From: a virus
Direction: 5' to 3' (one strand)
IMG/VR virus record: IMGVR_UViG_3300036845_000279
Span: 1-32,874 of that record
Length of the DNA stretch: 32,874 bases
Positions 4,705-21,504 of the stretch are shown one piece after another. Under the pieces are notes generated by a model. It was not told the origin of the DNA and did no database searches. It saw nothing but the letters and a program-made list of their open reading frames with translations. The translations under genes were made by a program, and so were the position numbers. Position 1 is the first letter of the stretch. Each line of letters starts with the position of its first letter.

Positions 4705-5811
4705 TCACGGCAGCAGCCCGCGTACCCAGTTGATGCCGCCATCCAAATTGAAGGGGCTGTAGTGGGGGTTGGTTCCGGTCTGGGCGATGAAGCCGATCCC
4801 GCTGACGATGGCCTGGAAGATGCCCCACACCTCATCAAACGGGGCCGTGAACAGGTTGGCGATGTCCGCCAGAATTGAGAACTGGTTGGAGAAGAAGTCC
4901 GAACGCGCAACCGCCTGGTAGATCGAGGCTTTAATGTCACCTTCGCGGGACGGGTTGGTGACTGCCCCCAGCACGCCGAGCAGCGGATTGGCCGCGGTCC
5001 CTCCGAGGAGACCGGTCAGGCTGCCGAGCAGTCCACTGTTTTGACTGAGGACCGTGCGTAAAGCAGCGCTCGTCGGCTCGTTGTCAGCGAAAATGTCGCC
5101 CTTCCGGTAAACATCCATGATCGGGAACTTTGGATTCAGTCCTAGGAGGTCGATACGCTTCAGCGGGTCGAGGCCGGAGTTCTGCGGCGGCCCGCCCTGT
5201 GCGCGCGACCAAGGCGCCACCGAACCCTTCTGGCGGCACGGATTTCCGTAGGCCAGCACACCGAGGATGTCGTTTTCTCGGGGGCTGCCGATCACGCGGT
5301 CGATCAGCCAGTCAGAGACGACGATCATCCCCTGGGAGAATCCGGCAACTACGATCTTGGTTCCGGGAGGGGCGAACTGGTTGACCCGGTTGTCCAGCTC
5401 GTTCACGCCGGAAGCGTTGTCGAACGGCAACGCACCATTGTTGTAGCCGGTCGGCAGGTGGGTGACCAGGCTCTCCTGCTCGAGGGCCTCAGCGGTACCC
5501 GCCGCGGGACCTACCCACATGTCACTCATGTGGCCTTCGACCGTGAAGAACGGGACACGTGGTTTTGGGATTGGTTTGATGAAGTGCGACTTGAGTTGCG
5601 AAGCGTAGTCGAAGATCCCGGTGACGGGCAGGCCGTAGCGGCGTTGCATCTCCGACACCACCGCCGCGGTGGCAGCGTCGTAAGTCCCGGTGGCGACAAG
5701 ATTTCCCGCGTAGGCTTTGAAGTGGGTGGCGAGGAATGTCTGTATCTGCGCGACTTTGGGATCTACATCGCCCAAGCCCCAGCCCACCCATTTACCGTTT
5801 GCGTCTTTCAT
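4705..5811 (-). CDS. lysB: Lysin B (mycolylarabinogalactan esterase)
   Basis: Encodes 368 residues; the ATG at 5811 overlaps the lysin A stop (ATGA). Residues ~1-75 form a peptidoglycan-binding-like domain (VAQIQTFLATHF, TGTYDAATAAVVSEMQRRYGL). The rest is an alpha/beta hydrolase of the cutinase-like lysin B family: the nucleophile elbow GFSQG puts Ser at ~159, KGDIFAD supplies the likely catalytic Asp, and NPHYSPF near residue 350 supplies the His. The enzyme cleaves the ester joining mycolic acids to arabinogalactan, freeing the outer membrane in the last step of lysis. Length fits the family, and all triad candidates are intact. Confidence 0.95.
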   Translation of the reverse strand: MKDANGKWVGWGLGDVDPKVAQIQTFLATHFKAYAGNLVATGTYDAATAAVVSEMQRRYGLPVTGIFDYASQLKSHFIKPIPKPRVPFFTVEGHMSDMWVGPAAGTAEALEQESLVTHLPTGYNNGALPFDNASGVNELDNRVNQFAPPGTKIVVAGFSQGMIVVSDWLIDRVIGSPRENDILGVLAYGNPCRQKGSVAPWSRAQGGPPQNSGLDPLKRIDLLGLNPKFPIMDVYRKGDIFADNEPTSAALRTVLSQNSGLLGSLTGLLGGTAANPLLGVLGAVTNPSREGDIKASIYQAVARSDFFSNQFSILADIANLFTAPFDEVWGIFQAIVSGIGFIAQTGTNPHYSPFNLDGGINWVRGLLP

Positions 5812-7010
5812 GCGCCGAATACCTTGTCTCTCAAAGTTTTGCCCTTCGAGGCCCAAGCCGGGTCTCCAGGTCCGAGCTGCGCCACGATGTAGCGGAGAAG
5901 GTCGGTGTCCGACGCGGCTGTGTACCATGCAATGAAAGCTTCGTCGGCGGCGCCGGATGTCGGCGGGACGGCAGGAGCGGGTGTTCCTGGGGTGTATTGC
6001 GCGACACGGGTGGCGAACACATCCCAGGGGAAGTTCAGTCCAACATCGGTGTGGGTGCTGCCAGGGCTCAACTGGGTGACGGTGATCGCGTTGTGGTCAG
6101 TGATCCCGTTTTCTTTGACCACTCGCGGATAGTCCTTACCGACCAAGATTTGGGTTGGGATGTTGAACGCCAAGCATTTTCTGACGGCCAGGTAGGCGGC
6201 GCTTTTAATACCGGCGGACATGTTGTCCAGCCACTCCTGTCGCGTCCAGTTCACTGTTGAGGTGGCGAAGCAAATGTTGATGGAGAACTCGTTAGCTGGG
6301 TCCAGCACTGACCAGGAGGCGACATCGTCGGTTTCCATGTCGTCTACGGAGCCGTCCGGGTTGATGATGTAGCCGTAGCTAACCCCGTTGCTGGCCATCC
6401 AATCGACAAACGCCGAGCCCTGCATCGACCCTTCCTCGGTGTGCAGGATGATGAGTCTCGGCTTGTAGCCTGCGCGGTCCTCGCAGTTGTTGTTGTTCTG
6501 GGTGAGGTCAGTTTCAGTGAACGGCGCCGGCCCGACCGGGGTTGGCGGCAGCGCGGGTACGGGCACATTTCCTCCTGAAGCGAGCTGGTTGTAAAGCGTT
6601 TGGGCGTCGGACATGCGCTGGTCGTAGCGATCCGGATAGGCCGACTGTTGAATCGCCTGCGCGTACGAGCCCGGAGTGTTGGTGTCGCTGTTGTAGTCGA
6701 GCTTCGCAAGCCGGGTGAAGAACAGCGCCGCCGATTTGTACGGGTCCATACATGTTGCGGCGTCGCCCCACCACCACGGCGGCCCCACCACCTGCTGCTG
6801 GAATAAGCCGACCGACGCGCTGTCGGAGCCGACCGCGTCGTGTGGAATCGACATGGACGCGGGCACTGCAGCGTTGGCGTACATCAGCCAGTTCGACTCG
6901 ACGAACACGGTCGCGAACCCGATCACGATGCCTTTCGGGCTAATACCTAGATCGGCACCAGCCTGCAGGACTGCCGGCGCATACTGTTGCGCAGTCACAA
7001 CCGGCCCCAT
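5808..7010 (-). CDS. lysA: Lysin A (lysozyme-like domain plus amidase)
   Basis: Encodes 400 residues. I choose ATG 7010 (MGPVVTAQQY), inside the end of a small upstream gene; an in-frame start at 7037 is less well placed. Residues ~5-145 resemble a transglycosylase/lysozyme-like domain with FVESNW (Glu38 a candidate acid) and SVGLFQQ. A Pro-rich linker (PVPALPPTPVGPAP) leads to an Amidase_2/PGRP-like domain (~175-335) with probable zinc ligands His190 (IILHTEEG), His306 (TDHNAIT) and His320/Asp322 (STHTDVG). A second Pro/Ala linker and a ~45-residue C-terminal segment (AFIAWYTAASDTDLL) follow, perhaps wall-binding. It would cut the glycan strand and the muramoyl-alanine bond. The stop overlaps lysB. 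Confidence 0.92.
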   Translation of the reverse strand: MGPVVTAQQYAPAVLQAGADLGISPKGIVIGFATVFVESNWLMYANAAVPASMSIPHDAVGSDSASVGLFQQQVVGPPWWWGDAATCMDPYKSAALFFTRLAKLDYNSDTNTPGSYAQAIQQSAYPDRYDQRMSDAQTLYNQLASGGNVPVPALPPTPVGPAPFTETDLTQNNNNCEDRAGYKPRLIILHTEEGSMQGSAFVDWMASNGVSYGYIINPDGSVDDMETDDVASWSVLDPANEFSINICFATSTVNWTRQEWLDNMSAGIKSAAYLAVRKCLAFNIPTQILVGKDYPRVVKENGITDHNAITVTQLSPGSTHTDVGLNFPWDVFATRVAQYTPGTPAPAVPPTSGAADEAFIAWYTAASDTDLLRYIVAQLGPGDPAWASKGKTLRDKVFGA

Positions 7011-7147
7011 GGGAGTCTCTCGTCGTCTTCGTCCCAATCGACGGTGGGCGCAATGAACGGGGCCGCAAGGAACACGACCAGCTCCAGAACACCGATGAGG
7101 GCGAGTAGGAGGATGGTGGCGTCGATGACATACCGGAGAACGCTCAC
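6995..7147 (-). CDS. Small single-pass membrane protein upstream of lysin A
   Basis: Encodes 50 residues from a GTG at 7147, four nt after the stop of the tail-fibre gene, and ends 16 bp inside lysin A. After (M)SVLRYVIDAT a long hydrophobic stretch (ILLLALIGVLELVVFLAAPFIA, residues ~11-32) forms one transmembrane helix, followed by an acidic tail with DWDEDDERLPW. No strong ribosome-binding site is seen, so it probably depends on coupling to the fibre gene. It is easily missed because of its length and GTG start. Its place ahead of lysin A suggests a lysis regulator or pinholin-like protein, not proven. Confidence 0.6.
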   Translation of the reverse strand: MSVLRYVIDATILLLALIGVLELVVFLAAPFIAPTVDWDEDDERLPWGRL

Positions 7148-7151
7148 CGGG

Positions 7152-8150
7152 TCACGACACCGCCGCCCAGAACGGGGTTGCGCTTGACGTAAGCGTTACA
7201 GGCGTGTGGAACGCTGTGGTGAGCCCAGTGTGGGTAGCATCAATGACGGCTCGGGGATGGGAGCTGATCAGGTTGGCCGCGCCCACAGAGCCGTTAGCAG
7301 AAGCGTCGTAAAAGAGCTTCGGCAGCGTGGTGCCAGTCGAAAACCACCCTACGTAATACAGTCCCGCTGCCACAGATTGCGCCACGGTCAAGGCCATTAC
7401 TTTTACACCTGCCGATTGCCAGGCCGTTGACTGATCAGCGGTAGCAGACAACAGGTTTCCGCTGAAATCAAACAACCCGGCGAAGTTCTGCCCCGACGTA
7501 AGAGTCGCACCTGCCGTGTTTATAGCGAAAATCACGTTGGTGATAGTGACGGCTTGCCGGATAGGCAGGAGAGTGAGATACGCCTCCCCGGCAACCAGGG
7601 TTGTGGTGATTCCGTACGACTTTATTGGATCGCCGGACCAAGCTATGTAGCCGTAGTCAGTCGGGGCAAATGCACCCAGTGCCGGAACAGCGATAGGGGC
7701 GGACCCGTCGAATCCAACGCCGTTGATGTTCGCCGGGGCCGCGAGTTTGGTGGCCGTCGCGGCATTCCCTGTGGTGCTCTGATTCAGATAGCGCGAATCC
7801 AACTGGGACAGCGGCTCATCGGTGGAGCGGACGCCCCATTGAGCGGTGGTCGAGTTGTATTGAAGAATTAAAGTTTGGCCCTGCAACAGTAATTGCGCCG
7901 GGGTTGTGCTACCGCCGAGGAATGCGTCGGAACCGCCTGGGACGATTGTCGCTATGTTCGCCGAGGCATAGGCGGCGTCGTAGCGTTTAACGGCGACGGT
8001 AGAAAGATTCGCCGGGGCAGTCGGCAACGTAATCGCCACGCTGGCCGAGGAGCAGTCCACGATAACCCAATCGTTGACGCTGGCAGTGTATGGCGCTGTA
8101 GTAGCGATCGGGACCAGGGATGGGGCGATGGGGGTGTATCTATAGGTCAT
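7152..8150 (-). CDS. Tail fibre / receptor-binding-type protein
   Basis: Encodes 332 residues; the ATG at 8150 overlaps the previous stop (ATGA). The N-terminal part (~1-95) is a beta-rich module (VNDWVIVDCSSASVAITLP, TLILQYNSTTAQWGV). Residues ~96-140 contain LDSRYLNQSTTGNAATATKL and NINGVGFDGSAPI, a linker pattern seen repeatedly in trimeric phage tail fibres. The C-terminal half is a beta-sandwich-like region (AGEAYLTLLPIRQAVTITN, FAGLFDFSGNLL) likely to contact the host surface. As the last virion gene before lysis it is a strong candidate host-range determinant. Confidence 0.75.
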   Translation of the reverse strand: MTYRYTPIAPSLVPIATTAPYTASVNDWVIVDCSSASVAITLPTAPANLSTVAVKRYDAAYASANIATIVPGGSDAFLGGSTTPAQLLLQGQTLILQYNSTTAQWGVRSTDEPLSQLDSRYLNQSTTGNAATATKLAAPANINGVGFDGSAPIAVPALGAFAPTDYGYIAWSGDPIKSYGITTTLVAGEAYLTLLPIRQAVTITNVIFAINTAGATLTSGQNFAGLFDFSGNLLSATADQSTAWQSAGVKVMALTVAQSVAAGLYYVGWFSTGTTLPKLFYDASANGSVGAANLISSHPRAVIDATHTGLTTAFHTPVTLTSSATPFWAAVS

Positions 8151-8389
8151 TGGCGCGTGAACTCCTCTACTACCTCGCCAGTGGCCGAACTGATGAGCCC
8201 CCAAGACTCGAGGACAACTTCGGGGTTTTCTTCCCTGGCTGATCTAACGACATGATCGACCTCGTTTTTCACGAGGTCTTTCGCGTCGTTGAACTCTTCA
8301 ATACTGAAGAAGACGTGCGGGCCGTGGTGTCTTGCTTTATTTGTCTTGACGAACAGCACATACGGTCCGGGCTGCTGAATTTCATCCAC
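8147..8389 (-). CDS. Small hypothetical protein between fibre genes
   Basis: Encodes 80 residues from a GTG with an excellent AGGAGG eight nt upstream. It is charged and soluble: a strand with PYVLFVKTNKARHHGPHVFF, then a long acidic helix (IEEFNDAKDLVKNEVDHVV), and a second short strand/helix ending EVVEEFTRQ. It could be a chaperone or adaptor for the adjacent fibres, as small acidic proteins between fibre genes often are, but no family is recognised. The stop overlaps the next start. Confidence 0.7.
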   Translation of the reverse strand: MDEIQQPGPYVLFVKTNKARHHGPHVFFSIEEFNDAKDLVKNEVDHVVRSAREENPEVVLESWGLISSATGEVVEEFTRQ

Positions 8390-8401: not shown

Positions 8402-10999
8402 CTAGAGTTTAGTCACATCAACGGTGGCCGCTATAGCAGAGTGCCCCCTCGGCGATGGATGCGTGCCGTCGCCGGTCATGGTGTTCAAAGCGATAGGAAC
8501 ACTGCTGACCGTGGTTCCCGCGTTGAGAGTTGCCAGCGCGGTTGTGGAATTGGTGATCGAGTAAAGGAAGCCCGCCATCAGTCCACCGGAGGCCCCCGCG
8601 CCTGGAAGCGTGAACGCAATACCCTTGTCCCCACCCGATTCAATCACAGCGCTGTTGAAGGCTGCGTCGCTGGACGTGATGATGGTCGTACCTGACGTAA
8701 TCGACGCCGTCGCCATCCGCGAAGGCGGCGCCCACAATCCAGATCCTAGCGAGGACTCAACCGGGGCCGCGATGTCAATAATTCCCGTAATCGGGTGACC
8801 AAAGTTACCGGCTACCAGAGCATTCGAAGTTCCAACAGCAACAGGCAGTAGGGTCGTCGGATCTATCGGAGCACCTGCCCGGACCCATGTGTTGTATATG
8901 GCCCGTTGCGGTGCGGACGACATCAACGTCTGGTTTACGGTAGTGGCCCAACCATCCGTGGACGATGTGAAGGGGGTATTCGTCGTTAGGTACACCCGTG
9001 AGATTCCGTGACGACGCACAGCGGTTGCGATGAGCACGTTGAGCGGTTCGACAGCAATCGCGTTAAGCGACAATATGTTTATGTCGTTGGAGACATATTC
9101 GATGATGGCGATATTTGCTCTAGTTGCGTAGGGAAGTCTGCGGAAGCTGCCGTTGGTCGACTGGAACGTGGTTGCGCGATCGCCAGGGAGGGCCAGATTC
9201 AGTAAGCCGCCCTTGCCGGTCACGGCTCTGATACCCCATCCGCCCTGATTAAGCGCCGGCCTATATTGCAACGTGCTATCGCCATACGCAGACGCCGCTG
9301 AGTCCCCGATCATCAAGACAGACTTAGCATTACGGTCGTTGACGCTCCCCATCAACGCTGCCGGGCCATACAGGTATTGACCGTTTGAACCGGCTACTGC
9401 CGCACTTCCTGGTGCGGTCAGGTCGGTAGTTGCTGTCCAGCCGCCATACGACCCGTAGGCCCCAAAAGACATCAGCCTGACGGGATAGGCCGTCCCGCTG
9501 GCCAGGAACGTGCGCACAGCAACAACGTCGCCAGCAGCTACTGTTATACCAACGGGGTCCGCGATAATACGCCCACCGGGATCTAGCGTCGCGGCGGTTC
9601 GTCCCCCAAAGGTCACCCTATAGACGGTGTTCACAACGGTGTTGGGGTTGGTGCTGCTGACGACGCGCACCGCGGCATTGAAACTTATTGGGCCTGTGGC
9701 ATCTGTGTCTAGGAAAGTTGCAGTCGCCGTGTAGAAATGAGTGAAAAGCGGTGCGACGCTGGTGGCCGCAATGCCTACCGTGAACAGAAATTCGCTAGTC
9801 CCAACGGTAGATGTTGGTACAGCCCCAAACTGGGACGACCCGTACCCGGTATCGCCTATGCTGACCATCTTGTTAGCGCCTGAGAGTGCATCAATCGGCG
9901 CCAGATAGCGTTGATCATTTGCCGCAACAGGATTCAGCGATCCGGCAGGGGACCAGTACTTTGTTCCGGCAACCGAAATGACTTGGTATTCGCGTTGTTC
10001 CCCGGACATCGGCAACGTGGTCGACGTGCCGCCTGATGAATAGAATATGTCCGATCCAGCGCAGCTGAGCGTGACAGTGTTGGCTGAGATGTCGTCAGGG
10101 TCGCGGCGCACCGCCAAGCGTGCCCCGACACGCAGCCCGGACAGTGCGGGCAGCGGTGGGGTTAGGTTGCCGGAAGTGGCGTTGTAGTACGTGATCTGGC
10201 CGATAACCGGAGCAGTGCTTGTCGTAACGATGCTCACCGTCGACAACGGCTCTAACGTATTGACGCTGTTTACCGATAAGGTTCCGTCAGTGTTGTTGAC
10301 GACCGCCGAGGTTTGTAACGCGGTGTTCGCCAAGCCTAATGCGGTCTGGGCCGCGGACGACAGCGCCACTGTGTTGCTGGTGACGGTAATGTCGGTGCCC
10401 GCTGCGATCGATTGCAGTGCTGTTGCCGCTAACCCCAGTTCGGTTTGCACTGCCGACGTTAGATCGGTCGCTGGGATACCGCCCGTGGGTTTGTTGTAAG
10501 CACCAAGATCGGTTCTCGCGGTGGCAGCATCAGGCGCGGTGAGTAGTTGACGCCCGAGTGTGGTGGCATCCGAAATGTTCGCCGATGCGACTGTCTGTAT
10601 CTGCCCCGCCAAAACCCCGGCGGTTGGTGTCACCGCAACCAGGTTGATTGGTGTCGTATCGACGCTCGCAGCGAAAGTTACCGACTCCAAGGTCAGCGGG
10701 GCCCGCTGCTCACCGGGCTCCCGGTAGTAGACGTTGGAAAAGTCCGCCCTGTAATACAGGGTCCCAGTCAGGTTCAGCACCGCCGTGTTCGCCAGCAGAT
10801 AAACAGGGACCAACGTGTTGTTATCAATAGTTGAATGGATAACTGAGGGCACCACGATCGCTGGGGGGGAGAGCGTGGGAACAGCCAGCACACCGCTTTC
10901 CTCGACCAGCATCGTGAATGACACACAACCGTTTATGAAGCCCTCAGTTGAGGATGGCTCCCAAGTTCCTGTGACCTCGAAATAGCTCAGCTGTGTCAC
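8402..10999 (-). CDS. Minor tail protein with C-terminal SGNH (GDSL) hydrolase domain
   Basis: Encodes 865 residues from a GTG preceded by GAGGA. Residues ~1-165 resemble the N-terminal region of actinophage minor tail proteins (TGTWEPSSTEGF, YRADFSNVYYREPG). A Thr/Ser/Ala-rich fibre stalk follows, with near repeats QTELGLAATALQ and QTALGLANTALQ at ~190-230. Residues ~559-865 are an SGNH hydrolase: GDS with Ser ~567 in VLMIGDSAASAYGDS, a Gly in LALPGD, VSND at ~636-639, and DGTHP with Asp ~844 and His ~847. A beta-rich insert of about 80 residues splits blocks III and V. Such esterases deacylate cell-surface glycans or lipids; here the substrate is probably an acylated envelope component. Confidence 0.85.
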   Translation of the reverse strand: MTQLSYFEVTGTWEPSSTEGFINGCVSFTMLVEESGVLAVPTLSPPAIVVPSVIHSTIDNNTLVPVYLLANTAVLNLTGTLYYRADFSNVYYREPGEQRAPLTLESVTFAASVDTTPINLVAVTPTAGVLAGQIQTVASANISDATTLGRQLLTAPDAATARTDLGAYNKPTGGIPATDLTSAVQTELGLAATALQSIAAGTDITVTSNTVALSSAAQTALGLANTALQTSAVVNNTDGTLSVNSVNTLEPLSTVSIVTTSTAPVIGQITYYNATSGNLTPPLPALSGLRVGARLAVRRDPDDISANTVTLSCAGSDIFYSSGGTSTTLPMSGEQREYQVISVAGTKYWSPAGSLNPVAANDQRYLAPIDALSGANKMVSIGDTGYGSSQFGAVPTSTVGTSEFLFTVGIAATSVAPLFTHFYTATATFLDTDATGPISFNAAVRVVSSTNPNTVVNTVYRVTFGGRTAATLDPGGRIIADPVGITVAAGDVVAVRTFLASGTAYPVRLMSFGAYGSYGGWTATTDLTAPGSAAVAGSNGQYLYGPAALMGSVNDRNAKSVLMIGDSAASAYGDSTLQYRPALNQGGWGIRAVTGKGGLLNLALPGDRATTFQSTNGSFRRLPYATRANIAIIEYVSNDINILSLNAIAVEPLNVLIATAVRRHGISRVYLTTNTPFTSSTDGWATTVNQTLMSSAPQRAIYNTWVRAGAPIDPTTLLPVAVGTSNALVAGNFGHPITGIIDIAAPVESSLGSGLWAPPSRMATASITSGTTIITSSDAAFNSAVIESGGDKGIAFTLPGAGASGGLMAGFLYSITNSTTALATLNAGTTVSSVPIALNTMTGDGTHPSPRGHSAIAATVDVTKL

Positions 11000-11009
11000 T
11001 CGTCCTCGC

Positions 11010-11546
11010 TCACTTGGCTTTTGTGATCATGTTGGCGTGGATGCAGTCGATTCTGGCTCGGGCCTCAGCACACACAAAGGGATCTGCTATGACAGTTAAC
11101 TGGTTGTCCTGCTTGGTTTCCGCGCCGATGGACCAGTTCGTTGAACCGGTAACGAGGAAGACGCCGTCGATGATGCATTCCTTCATGTGCATGATCGCGC
11201 CGTGCTCGCTACGTCCAGTCGCAACAGACGATGCGGGGTATTTCTCCTGGGTGAGTAGTTGGCGCTCGTGTACTCCCCCGGCCTGTGAACTGTCCAAGGT
11301 CAACTGGACGTAGCAGTTTTCCTGGGTCAGTTTGGTGCGCAGGATCTCCGCCAGCTCGGGGTCATCGAATCCGTACATCGCCACTACTAAAGACTTTGTG
11401 GCAGATTGCAAAAGGTATTTCAGTGCGCCGTGAACATCGTCCACGGGTGAGTAGAACGAGCGGTGCGTGTCCGGGTAGCCGGGAGGGAACGGACCTTTTT
11501 TGAACTGGTCGAGAACATCGAGGCGGGCGAGCGCGTGCGCAGCCAT
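11010..11546 (-). CDS. Phospholipase D-like (single HKD) protein
   Basis: Encodes 178 residues. ATG 11546 shares one base with the preceding stop (TGATG), preferred over an in-frame start 96 nt upstream. It has one complete HKD motif: His120-x-Lys122-x4-Asp127-x6-Gly134-Ser135-x-Asn137 (HMKECIIDGVFLVTGSTN). The N-terminal half carries FYSPVDDVHGALKYLL and SLVVAMYGFDD, typical of the PLDc_2/Nuc fold. One-HKD members act as dimers, either as nucleases (Nuc, BfiI) or phosphodiesterases. No signal peptide is seen. Its position between two tail-associated hydrolases suggests a lipid target, but a nuclease cannot be excluded. Confidence 0.85.
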   Translation of the reverse strand: MAAHALARLDVLDQFKKGPFPPGYPDTHRSFYSPVDDVHGALKYLLQSATKSLVVAMYGFDDPELAEILRTKLTQENCYVQLTLDSSQAGGVHERQLLTQEKYPASSVATGRSEHGAIMHMKECIIDGVFLVTGSTNWSIGAETKQDNQLTVIADPFVCAEARARIDCIHANMITKAK

Positions 11547-12298
11547 CAATACGTCGGTGTCGGGACGGTGACGGGGCGGCTGTAGGCGCCCTCGATGGTC
11601 GGCCGGATATCCAAGTCGAGAGGATCGGTATAGGTGTTCCACGTGGTGCCCACCATGGGAACGGGTTGCGTCATTGACCAGATGTAGGTGATGTTCCCGA
11701 CGGTGTGAGAGACGTTCCCGGGCGCGGTGGGGCTCGGATCAATGTTTTGGTAGTTGGGGTGTACGGAGTTTTGGCCGCAGAACGCGTTGTATTTGGCGGT
11801 TGGCAGGCCAGTGCCGCTACCTGTCGGCCAGTCCGTCCAGCCGTCGTATTGCCTCTTGATTTCGGTGCAGGTGAAGCTAGTTCCGGATGGGGCTGTGACG
11901 TTGGCGCCGAACCAGTTCGGCAGCCACGCCCCCGTAGCAGGCCCGAGGGCGCCCCCATACACACTCACACTGTTGCCGATCCACACAAAGCTCAGGTCGG
12001 TCGGGGAGATGGTGGTGGTGGGGGCGTAGGCGTTCAGCCAGTAGTTGCACACCACAGCGCCGAGGCTGTGCCCGAACGCCACCATCGGTGCTGTGCCAGC
12101 AAGTAGGTAGCTGTTAAGCATTTGCGCGCCGGCCTGCACCGTGTTCAGGAATAAGCCCTCGTTGTTGTAGGGCACTTGGATTTGGTTGTGACCTTTGGTG
12201 ATCTGCCCTTTGAGCATGGTCGGCATGTAGTTGTTGAGGCCGGAGAACGCGCCGCCGAGCATGAACACGGTTGTGGTCACTGATAGGCCGTAATCCAT
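11546..12298 (-). CDS. PE-PPE-type alpha/beta serine hydrolase
   Basis: Encodes 250 residues; the start lies 22 bp inside the upstream minor tail gene. After a strand with VFMLGGAFSG the nucleophile elbow GHSLGA puts Ser at ~78. VWIGNSVSVYGGALG (~105-119) matches the GNPxRPNGG signature that I associate with the PE-PPE domain, otherwise known from mycobacterial PE/PPE esterases. VHPNYQNID in the C-terminal third is a candidate for the triad His. No signal peptide or PE/PPE N-terminal domain is present. Family members hydrolyse acyl esters, so the natural reading is a virion-associated esterase acting on envelope lipids during entry. Confidence 0.8.
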   Translation of the reverse strand: MDYGLSVTTTVFMLGGAFSGLNNYMPTMLKGQITKGHNQIQVPYNNEGLFLNTVQAGAQMLNSYLLAGTAPMVAFGHSLGAVVCNYWLNAYAPTTTISPTDLSFVWIGNSVSVYGGALGPATGAWLPNWFGANVTAPSGTSFTCTEIKRQYDGWTDWPTGSGTGLPTAKYNAFCGQNSVHPNYQNIDPSPTAPGNVSHTVGNITYIWSMTQPVPMVGTTWNTYTDPLDLDIRPTIEGAYSRPVTVPTPTY

Positions 12299-14559
12299 AT
12301 TTGGCCGGGGGCGCCGTGGCCGCCGTTGGCTAGATAGGCGCCGCCCGCGCCGCCGCCGCCCGGGGCTGCGCCGTTCGCGTTGGCAATGAGTTCTTCAGCG
12401 CCGCCCATATAGGTGGTGTTACCCAGGCCGCTTGTGTAGACAAGGTTTCCGGGGCTGAGCCCGAAATAGGTGGGGTTCGATCCCGATACGGCGCCGCCGG
12501 CTGCGGTGATCGCTGGCCCGGTGTATCCGGTGATGGTGACCGCGCAGCCACTTCCCGCGGCGCCGTTGCTGATCTCGATGACACCACCCGCACCGCCCTG
12601 CCCGATGGTGTAGGTGAATGCTGTTGTGGTTAACGGAACATCGATGCCGTAGGTCAGTGTGAACGCTGCCCACACGCCGTGGTTGCCGCCGGAGCCGTAA
12701 GAGAAAATGGTGGAACCTGGTCCGCCTCCGCCGCCGTCACCGACCAACACAATATCGATGAGGTCACCCAACGCCATCCATGTCGGGACGGTGTATGTGC
12801 CAGACGCGGCGGTGAGGGTTGTGACTTCCGGGTCGTGCTGTGGCACCCCGAGGGTGCCGCCTAAGCCGAACCATGGCACGTTGTTGCTGTAAGGGGGGCC
12901 GGGTGCCGCGATCGTGGACGGCGGTAATGCGGGGGTTCCCGCCAGCCTTATAGTGACCGCACACCATGGGTTTGATGCACCGGCTGTTGCTGTGACACTA
13001 AAGCTTCCGACGGTGGAGCTGTCGCACACCATGAGGGCCGGGTAGTCGTTGCCACCCGAGTTCCATGCGGCGCGTTGGTTGGCTCCGGTGGGTGTGCCGA
13101 TGGATGCGCTGGACAGCGAACCTATCGACATGAACGCCACAATGGTGAGCCCATCAGCGATTCCGGTGGGTGATACAGCAAGCGCCGTACCAGAGCCGGC
13201 GGCGCTGCTGGTGGACGCGGTTGTTGTTGCGGCATTCTTGTAGGATGTTGCGCGTATCGACACCCAGGTTATCGCCGAGGATGAGTTATTCACTGTGACG
13301 CTAACAGTTTTCGCTGTTCCCGAACCAGCGCCGGCCAACCGGAAAACTTCCAGTAACCCGTTGGATGCGGTGGTGTTGGGGCTCAGACTGGTCCCAGACA
13401 TGGACACGCCGCCATAGGTGGTGACTATCGACGTGATCGCGGTGCCATTCGAGTAGGCGGCAACCGAAACCACCACATCATCACCGACTGGGGCAGTGAA
13501 CGATTCGGTCCAGTTAGGGCTTGTCGACGCAGCTAGTGAGGCGCGCACCCCCGTGGTGTCCGCCACATCGAAAACTACCGGGGTGATGGAGTTGCGTGAC
13601 CCACCCAACGACTGCGGAAACGAGGGGGTGATCGTGTTCACCGGCAAATAATGGTTGGGCTCACCGGCAATATTGAAGCTGGTGCCCGCGGTGCCTTCCA
13701 TCATCAATTCCACCGCGTACCAAGCACCCTGGACGCTCACGAACTGATCAATGGTGGGGATTGTGGTGTAGTTCCATCCCGCTGCGGCGGTGGTGACCGG
13801 CCCGATAGTGAACATCAACGTGCACGCGCCCGTCGTTGTGTTCAACGAATACACACTCAAATACAAAGTGAGGCCAGACCCGACTGTGGGTGCCAGCCAA
13901 ATGATGCTCTGCTTCAAACCGGCGTCCGGTGTGCCGATATAGCCGATAACGGAGCTGTCCGGTGTGACCGCCACAACCTTGGAGGAATCGGTGATCTGAG
14001 ACACAGGGAACACAGCGTCGGCGGTCGAATCTATCGCCAGATAGGAGGGTTTATAGATAGCCCGGTTGGTGAGCGCCTCGGCGTTGGTGGTGCCCGGCCA
14101 CGGGCCCGCATTGGCCACACCGCTGAGCCATGTCGCTAATTCGCTTGCGGTGGTGACAGAGAAACCTAGGTCGGTGAACAGGACATCCCACGCCGTGAAA
14201 GCGGTTTGCGCGTTACCACCTATCGTTTGCAGCGCAGCTATCAGGGCTGTCACATCAGTGTCGGCCTGCCCGACAACACCGTTGATCAGACTCTGAAAAT
14301 TCAGCGACGACTGCTGCAACACAGAGGAGATGAAGTTGAAGAAGGATTGCGCGTCGGCGAGCCACGCCACAAGATCCAAACCAGTGGCTTGGTCGATCGC
14401 CGTCAAAACGTTGTTGAGGAAAAGCTGCTCGGCCTTCGCTAGCGCGGCGGGGATCTGGTCGTTGAGGTGATTGATCTGCGCAGCAGTAACACTTATTTGG
14501 TTGTTCGGGTCGTGGGTGACCTGAAGGTTCTGCGAGAAGAGATCAATCTGGCGGGGCAT
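12277..14559 (-). CDS. Minor tail protein with Gly-rich C-terminus
   Basis: Encodes 760 residues. Residues 1-~150 are helical (ITAAQINHLNDQIPAALAKAEQ-like start, then AWLADAQSFFNFIS), probably anchoring to the baseplate. Residues ~165-330 form a carbohydrate-binding-like beta region (YLSVYSLNTTTGACTLMF). Residues ~330-570 look like Ig-like repeats with NWTESFTAPVGDDVVV and WVSIRATSYKNA. The C-terminus (~600-760) is Gly-rich (LVGDGGGGGPG, GQGGAGG, PGGGGAGG), a fold found in phage fibre tips and ice-binding-like adhesins. It is the largest structural candidate for host-surface contact besides the SGNH fibre. Confidence 0.8.
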   Translation of the reverse strand: MPRQIDLFSQNLQVTHDPNNQISVTAAQINHLNDQIPAALAKAEQLFLNNVLTAIDQATGLDLVAWLADAQSFFNFISSVLQQSSLNFQSLINGVVGQADTDVTALIAALQTIGGNAQTAFTAWDVLFTDLGFSVTTASELATWLSGVANAGPWPGTTNAEALTNRAIYKPSYLAIDSTADAVFPVSQITDSSKVVAVTPDSSVIGYIGTPDAGLKQSIIWLAPTVGSGLTLYLSVYSLNTTTGACTLMFTIGPVTTAAAGWNYTTIPTIDQFVSVQGAWYAVELMMEGTAGTSFNIAGEPNHYLPVNTITPSFPQSLGGSRNSITPVVFDVADTTGVRASLAASTSPNWTESFTAPVGDDVVVSVAAYSNGTAITSIVTTYGGVSMSGTSLSPNTTASNGLLEVFRLAGAGSGTAKTVSVTVNNSSSAITWVSIRATSYKNAATTTASTSSAAGSGTALAVSPTGIADGLTIVAFMSIGSLSSASIGTPTGANQRAAWNSGGNDYPALMVCDSSTVGSFSVTATAGASNPWCAVTIRLAGTPALPPSTIAAPGPPYSNNVPWFGLGGTLGVPQHDPEVTTLTAASGTYTVPTWMALGDLIDIVLVGDGGGGGPGSTIFSYGSGGNHGVWAAFTLTYGIDVPLTTTAFTYTIGQGGAGGVIEISNGAAGSGCAVTITGYTGPAITAAGGAVSGSNPTYFGLSPGNLVYTSGLGNTTYMGGAEELIANANGAAPGGGGAGGAYLANGGHGAPGQIWITAYQ

Positions 14560-16379: not shown

Positions 16380-18368
16380 TCAGCCAAATAACGTGCCCTC
16401 GCCGAGGAACGCGGCGAAAGCTCCGTAGACCGCGTTGAGCGCGCGCATCCCTCTAGCGACGGGGTCTTGTTTGTCTTTGTCGTCCCCAACGGAGATGGTG
16501 CACAGGACTGGGGATTGGCGGTCCCAGGTGCGTTTGATGGCGGTGATCTGGTCGACGTAAATAACACCGTCGAACTCCCACCCGGCGCGCTCCCCTAAGC
16601 GGGCATCAACGTCGAGTACCCAGGGCATGCCCGACAGGACCTGCGCTTGAAATCCATAATAAGCCCGGGTATTGAAGTCCGCCTGGCGTAGGGACAGGAT
16701 GGAGGACAGGGTGTAGGCGACTTGGGTGCCGCGCTCAAAATGCTCCTGATACGCCAAATCCCCGGTCCACACAGCTCGTGTGGGGTTGGTGATGCGCTCC
16801 CAGGCCAGTAAGACGTTGTCGAGCTGCCCTTGGTAGAGGGTGTCAAGGCCGGCCCCGATAGGCGGTCCACCCTCGACAGCAACGCCGCCCAAACCGCCGC
16901 CAGCCGCCACCACTGTCTGAATCTGCGATAGACCGAACTGGATTCCGAACGTTTGGGCTTGGTTGACAATTGAGGGGCTGCGTCCACCGGTCATCATGGT
17001 CAATGGGGGGGCTTTGTAGAGGGTGTGTTGTTTGTTGATGACGCGGTCGAAGGTGGATTCCCGCCAAATCACCTTCGGCGGTTGAGGTGCCACACCCAAC
17101 AGGGCTTCGGCGATGGGTGCGGTCGGGTTGATCACATCAATAACCGGTTCACCATCGAGTGTTTGACCGGTGTCCGCGTTGATCAGAACACTGGTGAATA
17201 GGTCGTCGAAGGTGACGCCGATCAGGTTCAGGATGCCGTCTAACGCGGTCCCGGCGGGGCCTGCCTGCCCGGACATGTCCTCCAGCGAAAAGACGACACA
17301 GTTCCTGGTGGGCATCGTGAACGCTTGAACCTCAGCATTCCCCAGTGCTTGCACCAACTGGTCCGCTGAGGACAAGCCGAGGGCGTCGAGGATGTCGATC
17401 GTCGCGGTTTCGGTGCCGGTGATGATGTTCGCCAGCTCCGGGTTCGGGGAGTCGGTGTCCTCATCCTTCAGGAACGTGTAGGCGCGCAGAACGACTCCGC
17501 AGTCTTTCAGCATGTCCACGGTGGAGGCGTGCCAATCCGTCCACGTCGCCCCAATGGCCGTCCACCGCGACTGATCCCGCAACGGATCAACGAACGCCAC
17601 CTGGATCGGCCACGACAGGGGGTTGAAGTCCGCCAAGATGTTCTGGTCTATCAGGGCTGGGTTGATCCACGACAGCGGGTTGAAAGCGTTTGTGATCGTG
17701 GATATTCCGGGGGTGAACAACCGCATCAGGTTGATCATGAACGTCGCAAACAAAATGGTGCGGATCGGGCCGGGTAGGACCCAGATGCGTAATGGCTGTA
17801 TTTCCGGCGCGAACCACGGTGTGGCAGCGATCAAAAGTTTTTTGGCGTGCTCCCGCACACTTAAAGCGATGAGTTCGACTGTGGAGGTGCCGTCTTCGTT
17901 GCGTTTGACGTTGATCTGATGAATCTTCCCGCCCCACCGCGTCTTCCACGTTCGCTGGGTGGGTATCGGATCAATCAACAGGTGTACGTCTGTGTAAACC
18001 TGGATTTGGTTGACCATCCAATCAACCAAATAGTTATCGTATGTCATGACGACACGCGCGGTGCCGGTGTCGGACATGAGTTCTTCGGTGTCGCAGGACA
18101 GTTCGCCGACGATCTCTGCCATCACATTCATGTTCTGGTCGGCCAGCCGGAGCATCGGCCTCTGCTGGGCGGAGATTTTCCGGACGTTCGCCTTGTTCAC
18201 CAGATACGTCAAGGCTGACAGCGGATCCTTGATTGGGTCGGGCATTCCGTCGGTGCCGTTGGGTGCGAATGCGCCGTCGAGGATTTTCGTGAAGTTCACC
18301 GCGAGCGGAGGCAACAAGGCTGCCAGGGTTGGGTTTTCGGGGAACCCGTACAGATCAAACGACGTCAT
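16380..18368 (-). CDS. Minor tail protein, Gp37-like (baseplate/Tal-type)
   Basis: Encodes 662 residues; the ATG overlaps the upstream stop. The N-terminal region (~50-180: LRLADQNMNVMAEIVGEL, VVMTYDNYLVDWMVNQIQ) is the beta-domain of siphovirus tail hub proteins (Gp37-like/Tal N-terminus). An AQQRPMLRLAD and GGKIHQINVKRNEDGTSTVELIA pattern is characteristic. A middle region (~200-270) is hydrophobic and aromatic (ILFATFMINLMRLF), perhaps membrane-interacting, and the C-terminal part (GVIYVDQITAIKRTWDRQSPV) returns to the hub fold. It should cap the tail tube and hold the fibres. Confidence 0.85.
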   Translation of the reverse strand: MTSFDLYGFPENPTLAALLPPLAVNFTKILDGAFAPNGTDGMPDPIKDPLSALTYLVNKANVRKISAQQRPMLRLADQNMNVMAEIVGELSCDTEELMSDTGTARVVMTYDNYLVDWMVNQIQVYTDVHLLIDPIPTQRTWKTRWGGKIHQINVKRNEDGTSTVELIALSVREHAKKLLIAATPWFAPEIQPLRIWVLPGPIRTILFATFMINLMRLFTPGISTITNAFNPLSWINPALIDQNILADFNPLSWPIQVAFVDPLRDQSRWTAIGATWTDWHASTVDMLKDCGVVLRAYTFLKDEDTDSPNPELANIITGTETATIDILDALGLSSADQLVQALGNAEVQAFTMPTRNCVVFSLEDMSGQAGPAGTALDGILNLIGVTFDDLFTSVLINADTGQTLDGEPVIDVINPTAPIAEALLGVAPQPPKVIWRESTFDRVINKQHTLYKAPPLTMMTGGRSPSIVNQAQTFGIQFGLSQIQTVVAAGGGLGGVAVEGGPPIGAGLDTLYQGQLDNVLLAWERITNPTRAVWTGDLAYQEHFERGTQVAYTLSSILSLRQADFNTRAYYGFQAQVLSGMPWVLDVDARLGERAGWEFDGVIYVDQITAIKRTWDRQSPVLCTISVGDDKDKQDPVARGMRALNAVYGAFAAFLGEGTLFG

Positions 18369-19399
18369 CGGCCGCGTCTGTAACGTTGCGGGACGAAGGC
18401 TGTCACAACGGCGTTCACGTTGGTGTGTTTCACCGTGAAATGCGTCGCCGTTTGCGGGGGGATGGTGTGCATGAAGCGGGTGAACTGCCGCTGCCAGATC
18501 GGCTGATCCGACTGATCAATCCCCGACAGAAAGAAATTCAGAATCCCTGATGAGCGGGCGATGTCGAAGAACACGTTGTCGACCGGGTCGTTCTCGGCTT
18601 GCAACGGAACCTCACCCGGATCGGTATTCACCAGGACCGCACCGTCGGCGGGGAAAATGGTGGGGAGGGCGACCATGCGAGCGGAGTTGTTGTCCTGCAC
18701 CTGACACAACCCGGCCCCTACGATCAGGTAGTAGGCGTGGGTTTCCACGTCCCCGCGGTTCGCCAAAACAATATTCCCCGAGTAATAGCCGTCGCTGCCT
18801 TGCGGTCCTGATGTCAGGGCTTTCCACTGCCCGAACACCGTTGGTTTCGAGTAATACGGGAAGGGGGCGATCCAATTGATGTCCCATTCGGCGAAGTTGT
18901 TGCCGAACGCGACGGGGTCGAGCTGCTGCGCGGAATCCACCGTTTTGTAGGGCCACACTTGTATCCACCGCCAGCCACTGAGTCTTGTGAAGACTCCGAG
19001 CCAGCCGGGCTGGTTTTCGATCTGGCCGGCCCACCAACGCTGCTCAGCCATCCGATACAGATAGTTGTTCTTCCCCGCTATTTGGACGCGGAAGTTGATG
19101 AGGCGTTTGTTGATGTTGGTGCGTTGCACCGTCGCCCCAGCCTGGAACGCACCCTCTATGAGGACTTGTTCGAACGGGATGTGCTGTTCCCCTTGGATGG
19201 TGGGGCCGAGCTGCACACCCTCCCACCCAGCCAACGCCCCGTTGAGATGGAAGACGTTGCTGTTGGGGTCGATGTAGATGACCTGCGTTTGTAGGGCGGC
19301 AAGGTATTCGGGGTACTGCTCCAGGGTGTTGTAGCTGCTGAGTTTCCCTGTGTAGGAGGCGGTCTGCCCGATGGGTATCGGGTTGATAGGGGCGGTCAT
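18365..19399 (-). CDS. Distal tail (Dit-like) minor tail protein
   Basis: Encodes 344 residues from an ATG overlapping the tape-measure stop (ATGA). Position directly after the tape measure and the sequence pattern (FRVQIAGKNNYLYRMAEQRWW, AEWDINWIAPFPYYSKP, FFLSGIDQSDQPIWQRQF) fit the first minor tail protein of actinophages, equivalent to Dit. It would form the hexameric ring between the tail tube and the Gp37-like hub. No enzymatic motif seen. Confidence 0.85.
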   Translation of the reverse strand: MTAPINPIPIGQTASYTGKLSSYNTLEQYPEYLAALQTQVIYIDPNSNVFHLNGALAGWEGVQLGPTIQGEQHIPFEQVLIEGAFQAGATVQRTNINKRLINFRVQIAGKNNYLYRMAEQRWWAGQIENQPGWLGVFTRLSGWRWIQVWPYKTVDSAQQLDPVAFGNNFAEWDINWIAPFPYYSKPTVFGQWKALTSGPQGSDGYYSGNIVLANRGDVETHAYYLIVGAGLCQVQDNNSARMVALPTIFPADGAVLVNTDPGEVPLQAENDPVDNVFFDIARSSGILNFFLSGIDQSDQPIWQRQFTRFMHTIPPQTATHFTVKHTNVNAVVTAFVPQRYRRGR

Positions 19400-21504
19400 T
19401 GGTGCGGCAGGTTCCCGCCGCTGGTGACCATCGCAGGCATACGGTTCTGTGCCCCGTTAAGCGTCTCGTGCAGATCCTGGGTCGGGCTACCTTGGCCGTA
19501 TTGGTTCACGTTCAACTGTGGGCCGGTGTCACCATAAAAGTGGTTAGTGGTGGTGGTTTCACCTGTGCGGACGTTCTGAGCCCCCCCGGGGCCGACCGGG
19601 ACCGACCCAGCATGCGGGATCAGACCACCCAACCCGGGGAGCATCGAACCCCCGCCGCCACCACCGAGGGAGCCGCCGCCTTGCTGGCCGGCGAACTTGT
19701 TTATCAGTCCCGTCGCGAGTTTCGTAATCCCAAACTGCAACGGATTCGATGAGCCACCGAACGTTTTGAACACCGAGCCGTCGAGCCCGAATTCCTGCAA
19801 CACACCATTGACCAGACCTGAGCCGAGCTGCTGCCCTTGGGATTCCGAGCTACTGCCACCAGCGCCGCCGCCGCTGGGGTCGGCTGGCATGGTGTAGAGG
19901 GGATCATGCTGCGCGCCGGTAGGTGCACCCCCTGAGAGCCCCCCGTTGCTGCCGTTCATGGCTAGGTGGGCGTGCTGGTCGAACTGAGAACTGCCGGCCC
20001 CTACTGAACCGCCGAGCGCGAATGCCCCTGATGAGCCACCAGATTCAGCGTTCATCCCACCCGGCAATGTCGCCGCGGTGTGACCTGAGTTGGGGTCGGA
20101 GCCGTGGTTGTACCAGCCGATGTTGAGGTCGTTCGGGCCGCCCATGCCGGGTTGGAAGCCGTGGGACATCAGCCACGAGCCCTCGTTCTGGGTGGAGAAC
20201 TGCACCGAGGGTGACATGCCCAACGCCGCAGTAGCAAGCTTGGAAACCATTCCACTGCAATCGTTTCGGAGCTGCTGGCTATACGGGGTGACTTGAAGGG
20301 ACTGGGCAACCCTGTACAGATTTGAGATACGGTTACCGGAGGCGTGGAGTTCGGAGGGGCTCGACGCGGACGGGGAGACACTGTCGGAGAAACTCGGTAT
20401 TGGGGGTGCCGCACTTGCACTCGGTGCCGGTGTGGCTGAACTTATCGAACCAGGGCCGGTTACCGGTAAGCCGCTGGAGAAGGCCCCGTAGGCGTCCGCA
20501 CCCGATCCGAGAACATCGCCGCCGGTTCCTAAACCGGTCACGTCGCTGAGATCGACGCCGGAATGGCCACCACCGGGTGCGGTCGCGTGAACGCCGGGGA
20601 TTTTGTTGAGCGTGTCGGCTATCGCCTGGTCGTACTTGTTGCCCTTCCCGCGGTTGTCGATGATCGCAGCGTTGCCGCTGCGGCGGATCTCATCATCAAC
20701 ATCTTTCGCGGCAGCAAACGCGACCGCCAACGGGCCGGCTAACCCTTCGATCGCCGTACCGATTTCGCCGATCTTCCCGGGCAAACCGTTGAAGATGTCG
20801 GCGAATCCCTGCGCGGTTTTCTTGGCCTCATCAAATTTATTGATGGCGTCCTGCACCGGCCCGGGAAGGTCTTTGACCCCTATCCCAAGTTTGCCGACAC
20901 CGTCAATGAGTTTGGATACGCCGCCAACAGTGTCTCCGGAGCCGAAGGCTGCGAACGCTTGCCTGGTCGTGTCGGCAGCAGCCTTGACGCCGCCCACTTT
21001 GTCTTTGATGTTGTCGATCCAGGACTCAAAGCCCTGGCCAGCGGCTTTGGAAAGTGCACCGCCGACCATCCCGGCGATGCCCTCGTTTCCGAAGGCTGAC
21101 GTGAACGCCCCGCCGACAACATCCTCAACGCGGGCGGAGAGTTGGCGTTTGATGTCGGGGCTGATCGCCCCAACCATCTCTTTGCCGATGTCCCCGACAG
21201 CATCCCGGAACTTGGAGTGCGCCTTTTTACCGGTTTCTTGGAGTGCGTCTTCGACCTTGGAGGATTGTTCTTTGACGCCGTCGGCCATCGACTCCGACGC
21301 ATCATTCCCAGCCTTGTGGAAGACGTCTTTGACTTTGCCGGTGGCCTTGGTGAAGGAATCGTGGATCTTATCGCCGATACCGGAGGTGGCCTTACCGAAA
21401 GTCTCGGTGGCGTCCTTCCCTGCTTCTTCCATCGCCGGGCCGAGCTTGCTCGTCTCGGGCATGATGGGAACCCAGAGGACTGAAAGATCAACGTGGGACG
21501 GCAT
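19396..21504 (-). CDS. Tape measure protein with NlpC/P60-like motif
   Basis: Encodes 702 residues. It fixes tail length and is ejected ahead of DNA. Residues ~20-110 are charged and helical (EEAGKDATETFGKATSGIGD); ~250-270 is a hydrophobic stretch (AIEGLAGPLAVAFAAAK). Residues ~390-490 carry a peptidase-like signature: Cys416 in RNDCSGMVSKLA, GPNDLNIGWYNHG, and His475 in SGHTAATLPGG, followed by MNAESGG, as in mycobacteriophage tape-measure motifs proposed to cut peptidoglycan during entry. The C-terminal 200 residues are Gly/Ser/Gln-rich. It is short for a mycobacteriophage, implying a tail near 100 nm. GGGAGG upstream supports the start; a second ATG 14 codons in is possible. Confidence 0.92.
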   Translation of the reverse strand: MPSHVDLSVLWVPIMPETSKLGPAMEEAGKDATETFGKATSGIGDKIHDSFTKATGKVKDVFHKAGNDASESMADGVKEQSSKVEDALQETGKKAHSKFRDAVGDIGKEMVGAISPDIKRQLSARVEDVVGGAFTSAFGNEGIAGMVGGALSKAAGQGFESWIDNIKDKVGGVKAAADTTRQAFAAFGSGDTVGGVSKLIDGVGKLGIGVKDLPGPVQDAINKFDEAKKTAQGFADIFNGLPGKIGEIGTAIEGLAGPLAVAFAAAKDVDDEIRRSGNAAIIDNRGKGNKYDQAIADTLNKIPGVHATAPGGGHSGVDLSDVTGLGTGGDVLGSGADAYGAFSSGLPVTGPGSISSATPAPSASAAPPIPSFSDSVSPSASSPSELHASGNRISNLYRVAQSLQVTPYSQQLRNDCSGMVSKLATAALGMSPSVQFSTQNEGSWLMSHGFQPGMGGPNDLNIGWYNHGSDPNSGHTAATLPGGMNAESGGSSGAFALGGSVGAGSSQFDQHAHLAMNGSNGGLSGGAPTGAQHDPLYTMPADPSGGGAGGSSSESQGQQLGSGLVNGVLQEFGLDGSVFKTFGGSSNPLQFGITKLATGLINKFAGQQGGGSLGGGGGGSMLPGLGGLIPHAGSVPVGPGGAQNVRTGETTTTNHFYGDTGPQLNVNQYGQGSPTQDLHETLNGAQNRMPAMVTSGGNLPHQ

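What the first reader, a model, noticed from the sequence alone, without database searches (positions are those of the whole stretch)
8402..12298. Three adjacent envelope-type hydrolases in the tail operon
A PE-PPE-like serine hydrolase (GHSLGA), a single-HKD PLD-like enzyme and an SGNH esterase-fibre are consecutive and tightly spaced. With the tape-measure Cys/His motif they could attack, in order, acylated outer lipids or glycans, phospholipid and peptidoglycan: an entry apparatus tailored to the mycolate outer membrane. I know no named system combining these three.
Basis: partly seen in the sequence, partly recalled or inferred. Interest (0 to 1): 0.75.

Follow-up and report, generated by a model that had tools for sequence, protein, structure and literature searches.

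The report
Tail-borne PE-PPE esterase in mycobacteriophage
A phage of mycobacteria carries, among its tail genes, an intact lipid-ester-cutting enzyme of the mycobacterial PE-PPE type that in related phages is fused to the tail-tip protein, so it probably helps the phage enter through the waxy outer layer; the two enzyme genes beside it do not form a fixed trio with it.

Summary
The three ORFs are real, consecutive and tightly packed, but they are not one module. (1) PE-PPE hydrolase (11546-12280, minus): Pfam PF08237 1.4e-16, conserved Ser/Asp/His, cutinase/LysB-type fold. It occurs in the tail operon of four other phage contigs. In three more (two lineages) it is fused N-terminally to the Sipho_Gp37 tail protein that follows Dit, with the active-site residues kept. 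The nearest Mycobacteriaceae hub relatives (76-81% identity) lack it. This is good evidence for a tail-borne envelope esterase, most likely used at entry; I found no description of one. (2) The 'PLD' (11010-11546) is a single-HKD protein whose nearest relatives are NucT/Nuc nucleases. It lies in many phages without lysin B (15 of 16 PLD-only records), often beside endolysin genes, so 'phospholipid attack on a mycolate envelope' is not supported. (3) The SGNH protein (8402-10999) is a fibre-like esterase of a kind already annotated in Gordonia and Arthrobacter phages; it was not found in the relatives that keep the PE-PPE+PLD pair. Virion location, activity and substrate are inferred, not shown.

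The parts
11546..12280 (-). PE-PPE (PF08237) serine alpha/beta hydrolase, 244 aa, no signal peptide seen; Ser72, Asp146/Asp150, His174 (numbered from GTG 12280)
11010..11546 (-). single-HKD PLD-superfamily protein, 178 aa, NucT/Nuc-like
8402..10999 (-). 865-aa fibre-like protein with C-terminal SGNH/GDSL hydrolase (about 436-860)
12277..14559 (-). minor tail protein with glycine-rich C-terminal domain, directly upstream of PE-PPE (4-nt overlap)
16380..18368 (-). Sipho_Gp37 (PF14594) tail protein following Dit: the protein that carries the PE-PPE domain as a fusion in L004, L005, L040
18365..19399 (-). Dit-like minor tail protein (assignment by position and similarity)
19396..21504 (-). tape measure protein with endolysin-like Cys/His stretch (residues about 413-527)
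7152..8204 (-). second tail-fibre-like protein downstream of the SGNH gene (true start uncertain)
5808..7037 (-). lysin A (Amidase_2; phrog_700 4e-82)
4705..5928 (-). lysin B (phrog_102 1e-61; also weak PE-PPE/cutinase matches)

Best explanation
The core of the finding is a tail-associated serine esterase. Phages of mycolate-bearing hosts have taken up the PE-PPE alpha/beta-hydrolase domain (kin to the phages' own lysin B and to host cutinase-like and PE-PPE enzymes). They place it in the tail, either as a separate gene behind the minor tail genes (as here) or fused to the N-terminus of the Gp37-type hub protein at the tail tip. After adsorption it would cut acyl esters of the outer membrane (mycolates on arabinogalactan or trehalose, or other acylated glycolipids) near the tail tip, opening or thinning the mycomembrane for DNA entry: in effect an entry counterpart to lysin B. 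Shown: domain, active-site residues, tail-operon position, hub fusions, association with lysin-B phages. Inferred: presence in virions, catalysis, substrate, timing. The neighbouring PLD is a separate NucT-like accessory gene of late operons, and the SGNH fibre a separate host-surface (probably polysaccharide O-acyl) esterase; they need not act with the PE-PPE enzyme.
For: PF08237 match and conserved Ser/Asp/His in 10 phage sequences. Triad as published for PE-PPE (PMC3037379). Model (pLDDT 74) matches cutinases (2czq Z 14.0), D29 lysin B (3hc7 Z 13.4, 3.7 A, 158 aligned) and Mtb Rv3802c (Z 11.8). hhalign of the PE-PPE alignment to lysin B: probability 87% over the Ser-containing part. PE-PPE fused to PF14594 in one ORF in L004 (173 and 32 bits) and L040 (394 and 30 bits), also L005, each with the active-site residues; L004 and L040 are only 30% identical. 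Nearest hub relatives in Mycobacteriaceae genomes align from residue 233-235 on, i.e. lack the domain: a removable module. Free-standing PE-PPE gene in the tail region of L002, L003, L034, L035. Lysin B in 6 of 7 PE-PPE records against 1 of 16 PLD-only records, Fisher p 5e-4. No signal-peptide-like start, unlike host PE-PPE proteins and phage Chris gp95. Purifying selection. DNA kinship of the tail genes to Mycobacterium phages only.
Against: No virion proteomics or activity data. In L002, L003 and L035 the gene lies just before LysA, so a lysis role is possible for the free-standing form. In L041/L042 a distant PE-PPE gene lies beside the terminase, not in a tail operon. The StAugustine tail-region homologue gp42 has lost the Ser and His, so the domain can persist without catalysis, perhaps as a binding domain. 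The model is weak after residue 150, so the Asp/His geometry is not verified. The 401-genome hub search showed no further fusion.
Confidence: 0.6

Rival explanations
1. The PE-PPE protein is a second lysis-phase esterase (a duplicate lysin B) made late from the tail-lysis operon, together with the NucT-like protein, and is not in the virion.
For: In L002/L006, L003 and L035 it lies one or two genes before LysA; PLD lies near endolysin genes in 10 of 26 loci; the lysin B profile weakly recognises PE-PPE genes.
Against: Fusion to the Gp37 hub in two lineages is hard to explain for a soluble lysis enzyme; the records also have their own lysin B in 6 of 7 cases; in the window and L034 the gene overlaps a minor tail gene by 4 nt.
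Confidence: 0.2
2. The domain serves recognition or receptor processing: it binds or trims an acylated surface glycolipid (such as trehalose polyphleates or glycopeptidolipids) as a receptor step rather than breaching the mycomembrane.
For: Degenerate StAugustine copy in the tail region; patchy presence on otherwise closely similar hubs; such glycolipids are named as phage receptors in a review (PMC13314858).
Against: Catalytic residues are kept in all ten other aligned phage copies.
Confidence: 0.15
3. One reading: PE-PPE, PLD and SGNH form one sequential entry apparatus tailored to the mycolate envelope.
For: Adjacency and tight spacing in this window; intact motifs in all three.
Against: The trio was found nowhere else: SGNH in none of 14 related records and not in scanned tail genes of L002, L003, L034; PLD mostly in phages without lysin B; PLD closest to nucleases.
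Confidence: 0.05

Closest known systems
Mycobacteriophage lysin B (mycolylarabinogalactan esterase, D29 LysB 3HC7)
   Same: alpha/beta serine hydrolase fold, lipid-ester chemistry expected, phages of mycolate hosts; many lysin B proteins carry PF08237 matches (PMC7022511)
   Different: lies in the tail operon or on the hub protein instead of the lysis cassette; present in addition to the phage's own lysin B; GHSLG instead of GYSQG
Mycobacterial PE-PPE domain proteins (PF08237, Rv1430 type)
   Same: family match, Ser/Asp/His positions, QYD..D.P motif
   Different: no PE/PPE or signal-peptide region; phage-borne; Leu instead of the usual Gln at the fourth place of the pentapeptide
Virion-associated lysins of mycobacteriophages (TM4 tape measure motif; D-Ala-D-Ala carboxypeptidase-like minor tail protein Omega gp39)
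   Same: enzyme domain borne by tail proteins
   Different: those act on peptidoglycan (known or presumed); here an esterase of the outer lipid layer is predicted
NucT / Nuc (single-HKD nucleases)
   Same: HKD motif, size, fold (1byr Z 18.6, 6ehi Z 18.4)
   Different: far below the NucT equivalog cut-off; phage late-operon gene; activity unknown
SGNH tail esterases of Gordonia/Arthrobacter phages (Culver gp58, AbbyDaisy gp28; phrog_8480)
   Same: C-terminal half, 30-33% identical, same catalytic residues, tail-region gene
   Different: longer N-terminal fibre part here

Membership tests
PE-PPE domain (PF08237) | Score above Pfam gathering cut-off | tested here: met
   61.1 bits against 21
PE-PPE domain (PF08237) | GxSxG/S pentapeptide and conserved Ser, Asp, His triad | tested here: met
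   GHSLG, QYDGWTDWP, HPNY; aligned with host proteins; published triad PMC3037379. Which of Asp146/Asp150 is catalytic is not settled
PE-PPE domain (PF08237) | Esterase activity | not testable with these tools
   no assay
Lysin B | Cutinase-like alpha/beta hydrolase fold as in D29 LysB | tested here: met
   3hc7 Z 13.4, rmsd 3.7, 158 aligned; similar Z for cutinases, so not specific
Lysin B | Place in the lysis cassette next to LysA | tested here: not met
   the phage's lysin B is a separate gene (4705-5928); PE-PPE lies in the tail genes
Lysin B | Mycolylarabinogalactan esterase activity | not testable with these tools
   no assay
Virion-associated lysin/depolymerase | Gene in tail operon or domain in a tail protein | tested here: met
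   tail region here and in L002, L003, L034, L035; PF14594 fusions in L004, L005, L040
Virion-associated lysin/depolymerase | Protein found in virions | not testable with these tools
   needs virion mass spectrometry
NucT/Nuc nuclease | Single HKD motif and Nuc fold | tested here: met
   motif invariant; 1byr Z 18.6, 6ehi Z 18.4
NucT/Nuc nuclease | Equivalog score for NucT | tested here: not met
   38.6 bits against cut-off 297: related, not NucT itself
Phospholipase D (two-HKD enzyme) | Two HKD motifs in one chain | tested here: not met
   one HKD motif in 178 aa
SGNH/GDSL hydrolase | Blocks GDS, G, (G)xND, DxxH | tested here: met
   S567, G606, N638, D844, H847 conserved with two phage homologues; block III reads VSND
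SGNH/GDSL hydrolase | Pfam GDSL gathering score | tested here: not met
   18 bits against 23.6 and 32.9; related by phrog_8480 and 9kr0 instead

The most novel reading that the evidence does not exclude
Some phages of mycolate bacteria carry a dedicated mycolate/glycolipid esterase on the tail hub, an 'entry lysin B', separate from the exit lysin B, which answers how such phages breach the mycomembrane from outside.
Probability: 0.35. Interest if true: 0.75.

Novelty: new variant of a known kind. Interest (0 to 1): 0.5.

Why it matters
How phages cross the mycolate outer membrane on the way in is poorly understood; the virion enzymes I found described for mycobacteriophages act on peptidoglycan. 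A removable lipid-esterase domain on the tail hub makes the question testable: compare near-identical hubs with and without it, and assay the domain on purified envelope lipids.

Tried and rejected
DNA-level search of 8-13 kb against phages: nothing. PLD in annotated phages: nothing; in plasmids only distant, including Pantoea and Salmonella 'phospholipase D family' proteins. PLD alignment against 396 genomes of the phylum at 1e-15: nothing, which the tool itself calls uninformative. Sequence search of PE-PPE against solved structures: no significant match by single sequence or profile. Genome-contig scan with PE-PPE found only ordinary chromosomal PE-PPE proteins, several with signal-peptide-like starts, not prophages. 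Long N-terminal open frames on hubs L052, L053, L067, L069 looked like read-through of an upstream overlapping frame, not other enzyme domains. Considered a defence role for the PLD because of DrmC matches; rejected as main reading since no other DISARM gene was seen and Nuc/NucT match better in structure. Papers: no held paper that I found describes a PE-PPE or lysin-B-like domain on a phage tail; the library lacks most subscription papers.

Full report
What the window is. It is a 32.9-kb virus record with a siphovirus structural module read on the minus strand: terminase, portal, capsid, tail genes, tape measure, Dit-like protein, Sipho_Gp37 protein, minor tail proteins, then PE-PPE, PLD, SGNH fibre, a small gene, a second fibre, LysA and LysB, followed by a probable holin. 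The tail genes have DNA similarity only to Mycobacterium phages such as Bipper and Typha, and LysB is present, so a mycolate host is very likely. Terminase, portal and capsid names rest on sequence inspection and similarity to other contigs, not on a family scan of those genes.

The observation. The three ORFs and their motifs are real. The PE-PPE gene most likely starts at GTG 12280, overlapping the stop of the minor tail gene by four bases; its relatives start at the same place. The PLD gene starts at ATG 11546, overlapping the PE-PPE stop by one base; SGNH starts 10 bases after PLD. PE-PPE and PLD show dN well below dS between relatives.

PE-PPE. The match to PF08237 is well above cut-off. 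Ser72, Asp146, Asp150 and His174 are invariant in ten phage sequences and line up with host PE-PPE proteins. The predicted structure, weak in its last third (pLDDT 74 overall), resembles cutinase-like proteins, D29 lysin B and Rv3802c. Two facts place it at the tail. First, the gene sits in the tail region of four other records, L002, L003, L034 and L035. Second, in L004, L005 and L040 the domain and PF14594 form one ORF in the tail region. L004 and L005 are near-identical records; L040 is a separate lineage at 30% identity. The hub relatives in Mycobacteriaceae genomes that are 76-81% identical align only from residue 233-235 onward, so the domain is an optional add-on. Six of seven PE-PPE records have a separate lysin B; the seventh contig ends inside the corresponding region. 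Among 16 PLD records without PE-PPE only one has lysin B (Fisher p 5e-4). The samples are small and related records inflate this.

Other phage PE-PPE genes exist and differ. Phages Chris, Nibb and Oscar carry one near the right genome end; the Chris protein has a signal-peptide-like start and lies beside a HicAB pair. StAugustine gp42 lies among genes after the minor tail proteins but has lost the Ser and His.

PLD. It has one HKD motif, invariant over 18 sequences. By sequence, profile and fold its nearest kin are Nuc and NucT. MitoPLD/Zucchini also scores well, so lipid activity is not excluded. It occurs in phage contigs of 5-164 kb, most without lysin B. An endolysin-type gene lies within about 1.2 kb in 10 of 26 loci (L003, L006, L007, L008, L018, L021, L022, L024, L029, L034); others lie beside portal or tail genes. 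These neighbour counts rest on simple ORF picking. The pair PE-PPE+PLD is adjacent in L002/L006 and L003, separated in L034, and PLD was not seen in L035.

SGNH. The C-terminal half matches tail esterases annotated in Gordonia and Arthrobacter phages, also proteins of rhizobial phages, with all catalytic residues. The stalk part resembles a fibre of L017. It was not found in 14 related records; that search can miss diverged copies.

Mechanism. Best reading: an esterase at the tail tip that loosens the outer lipid layer during entry, working like a lysin B but from outside. Steps shown: domain, residues, genomic place, fusion. Steps inferred: virion presence, activity, substrate, timing. The lysis-phase and receptor-processing rivals remain open, the former mainly for the free-standing form.

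Novelty. Each family is known. Lysin B proteins with PE-PPE matches are published (PMC7022511), as are virion-borne peptidoglycan hydrolase or carboxypeptidase-like domains in mycobacteriophages (PMC6116114, PMC3706429). A PE-PPE/lysin-B-like domain on the tail hub I did not find described. Hence a new variant of a known kind. The 'three-enzyme apparatus' is not supported as a unit.

Noticed in passing
window 12277-14559: Minor tail protein is mosaic: its first about 111-128 residues are 65-76% identical to L002 and L003 homologues, while the rest is replaced or diverged (about 30% or no match), although both upstream neighbours g115 and g395 stay at 87-93% identity.
   Followed up: partly
L031 11671-13668 (Mycobacterium phage StAugustine gp42): Tail-region PE-PPE domain with catalytic Ser and His replaced but the QFDGWADWP motif kept: a possibly non-catalytic binding version.
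   Followed up: partly
L075 2869-4002 (phage Chris gp95) and relatives: Secreted-looking PE-PPE hydrolase near the right genome end beside a HicAB toxin-antitoxin pair; RefSeq and phrog_9390 call this family 'DNA binding protein', probably a misannotation.
   Followed up: partly
L041 4494-5234, L042 2059-2772: Distant PE-PPE gene, in L042 directly upstream of the terminase large subunit gene, with intact GxSxG, QYDGWADLP and HMNY motifs.
   Followed up: partly
L008 11365-12477: Rv2525c-type glycoside-hydrolase-like protein shortly downstream of a NucT-like PLD gene.
   Followed up: no
L007 5574-9041, L008 6569-9331, L010 5598-8990, L014 5635-9417, L026 3566-7000: Large proteins of the uncharacterised phrog_5313 family lie upstream of the PLD gene in five contigs; no Pfam match for the one tested.
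   Followed up: partly
window 19396-21504: Tape measure protein is short (702 aa) and holds an endolysin-like stretch with NDCSG and a later His, fitting a Cys/His peptidase.
   Followed up: partly
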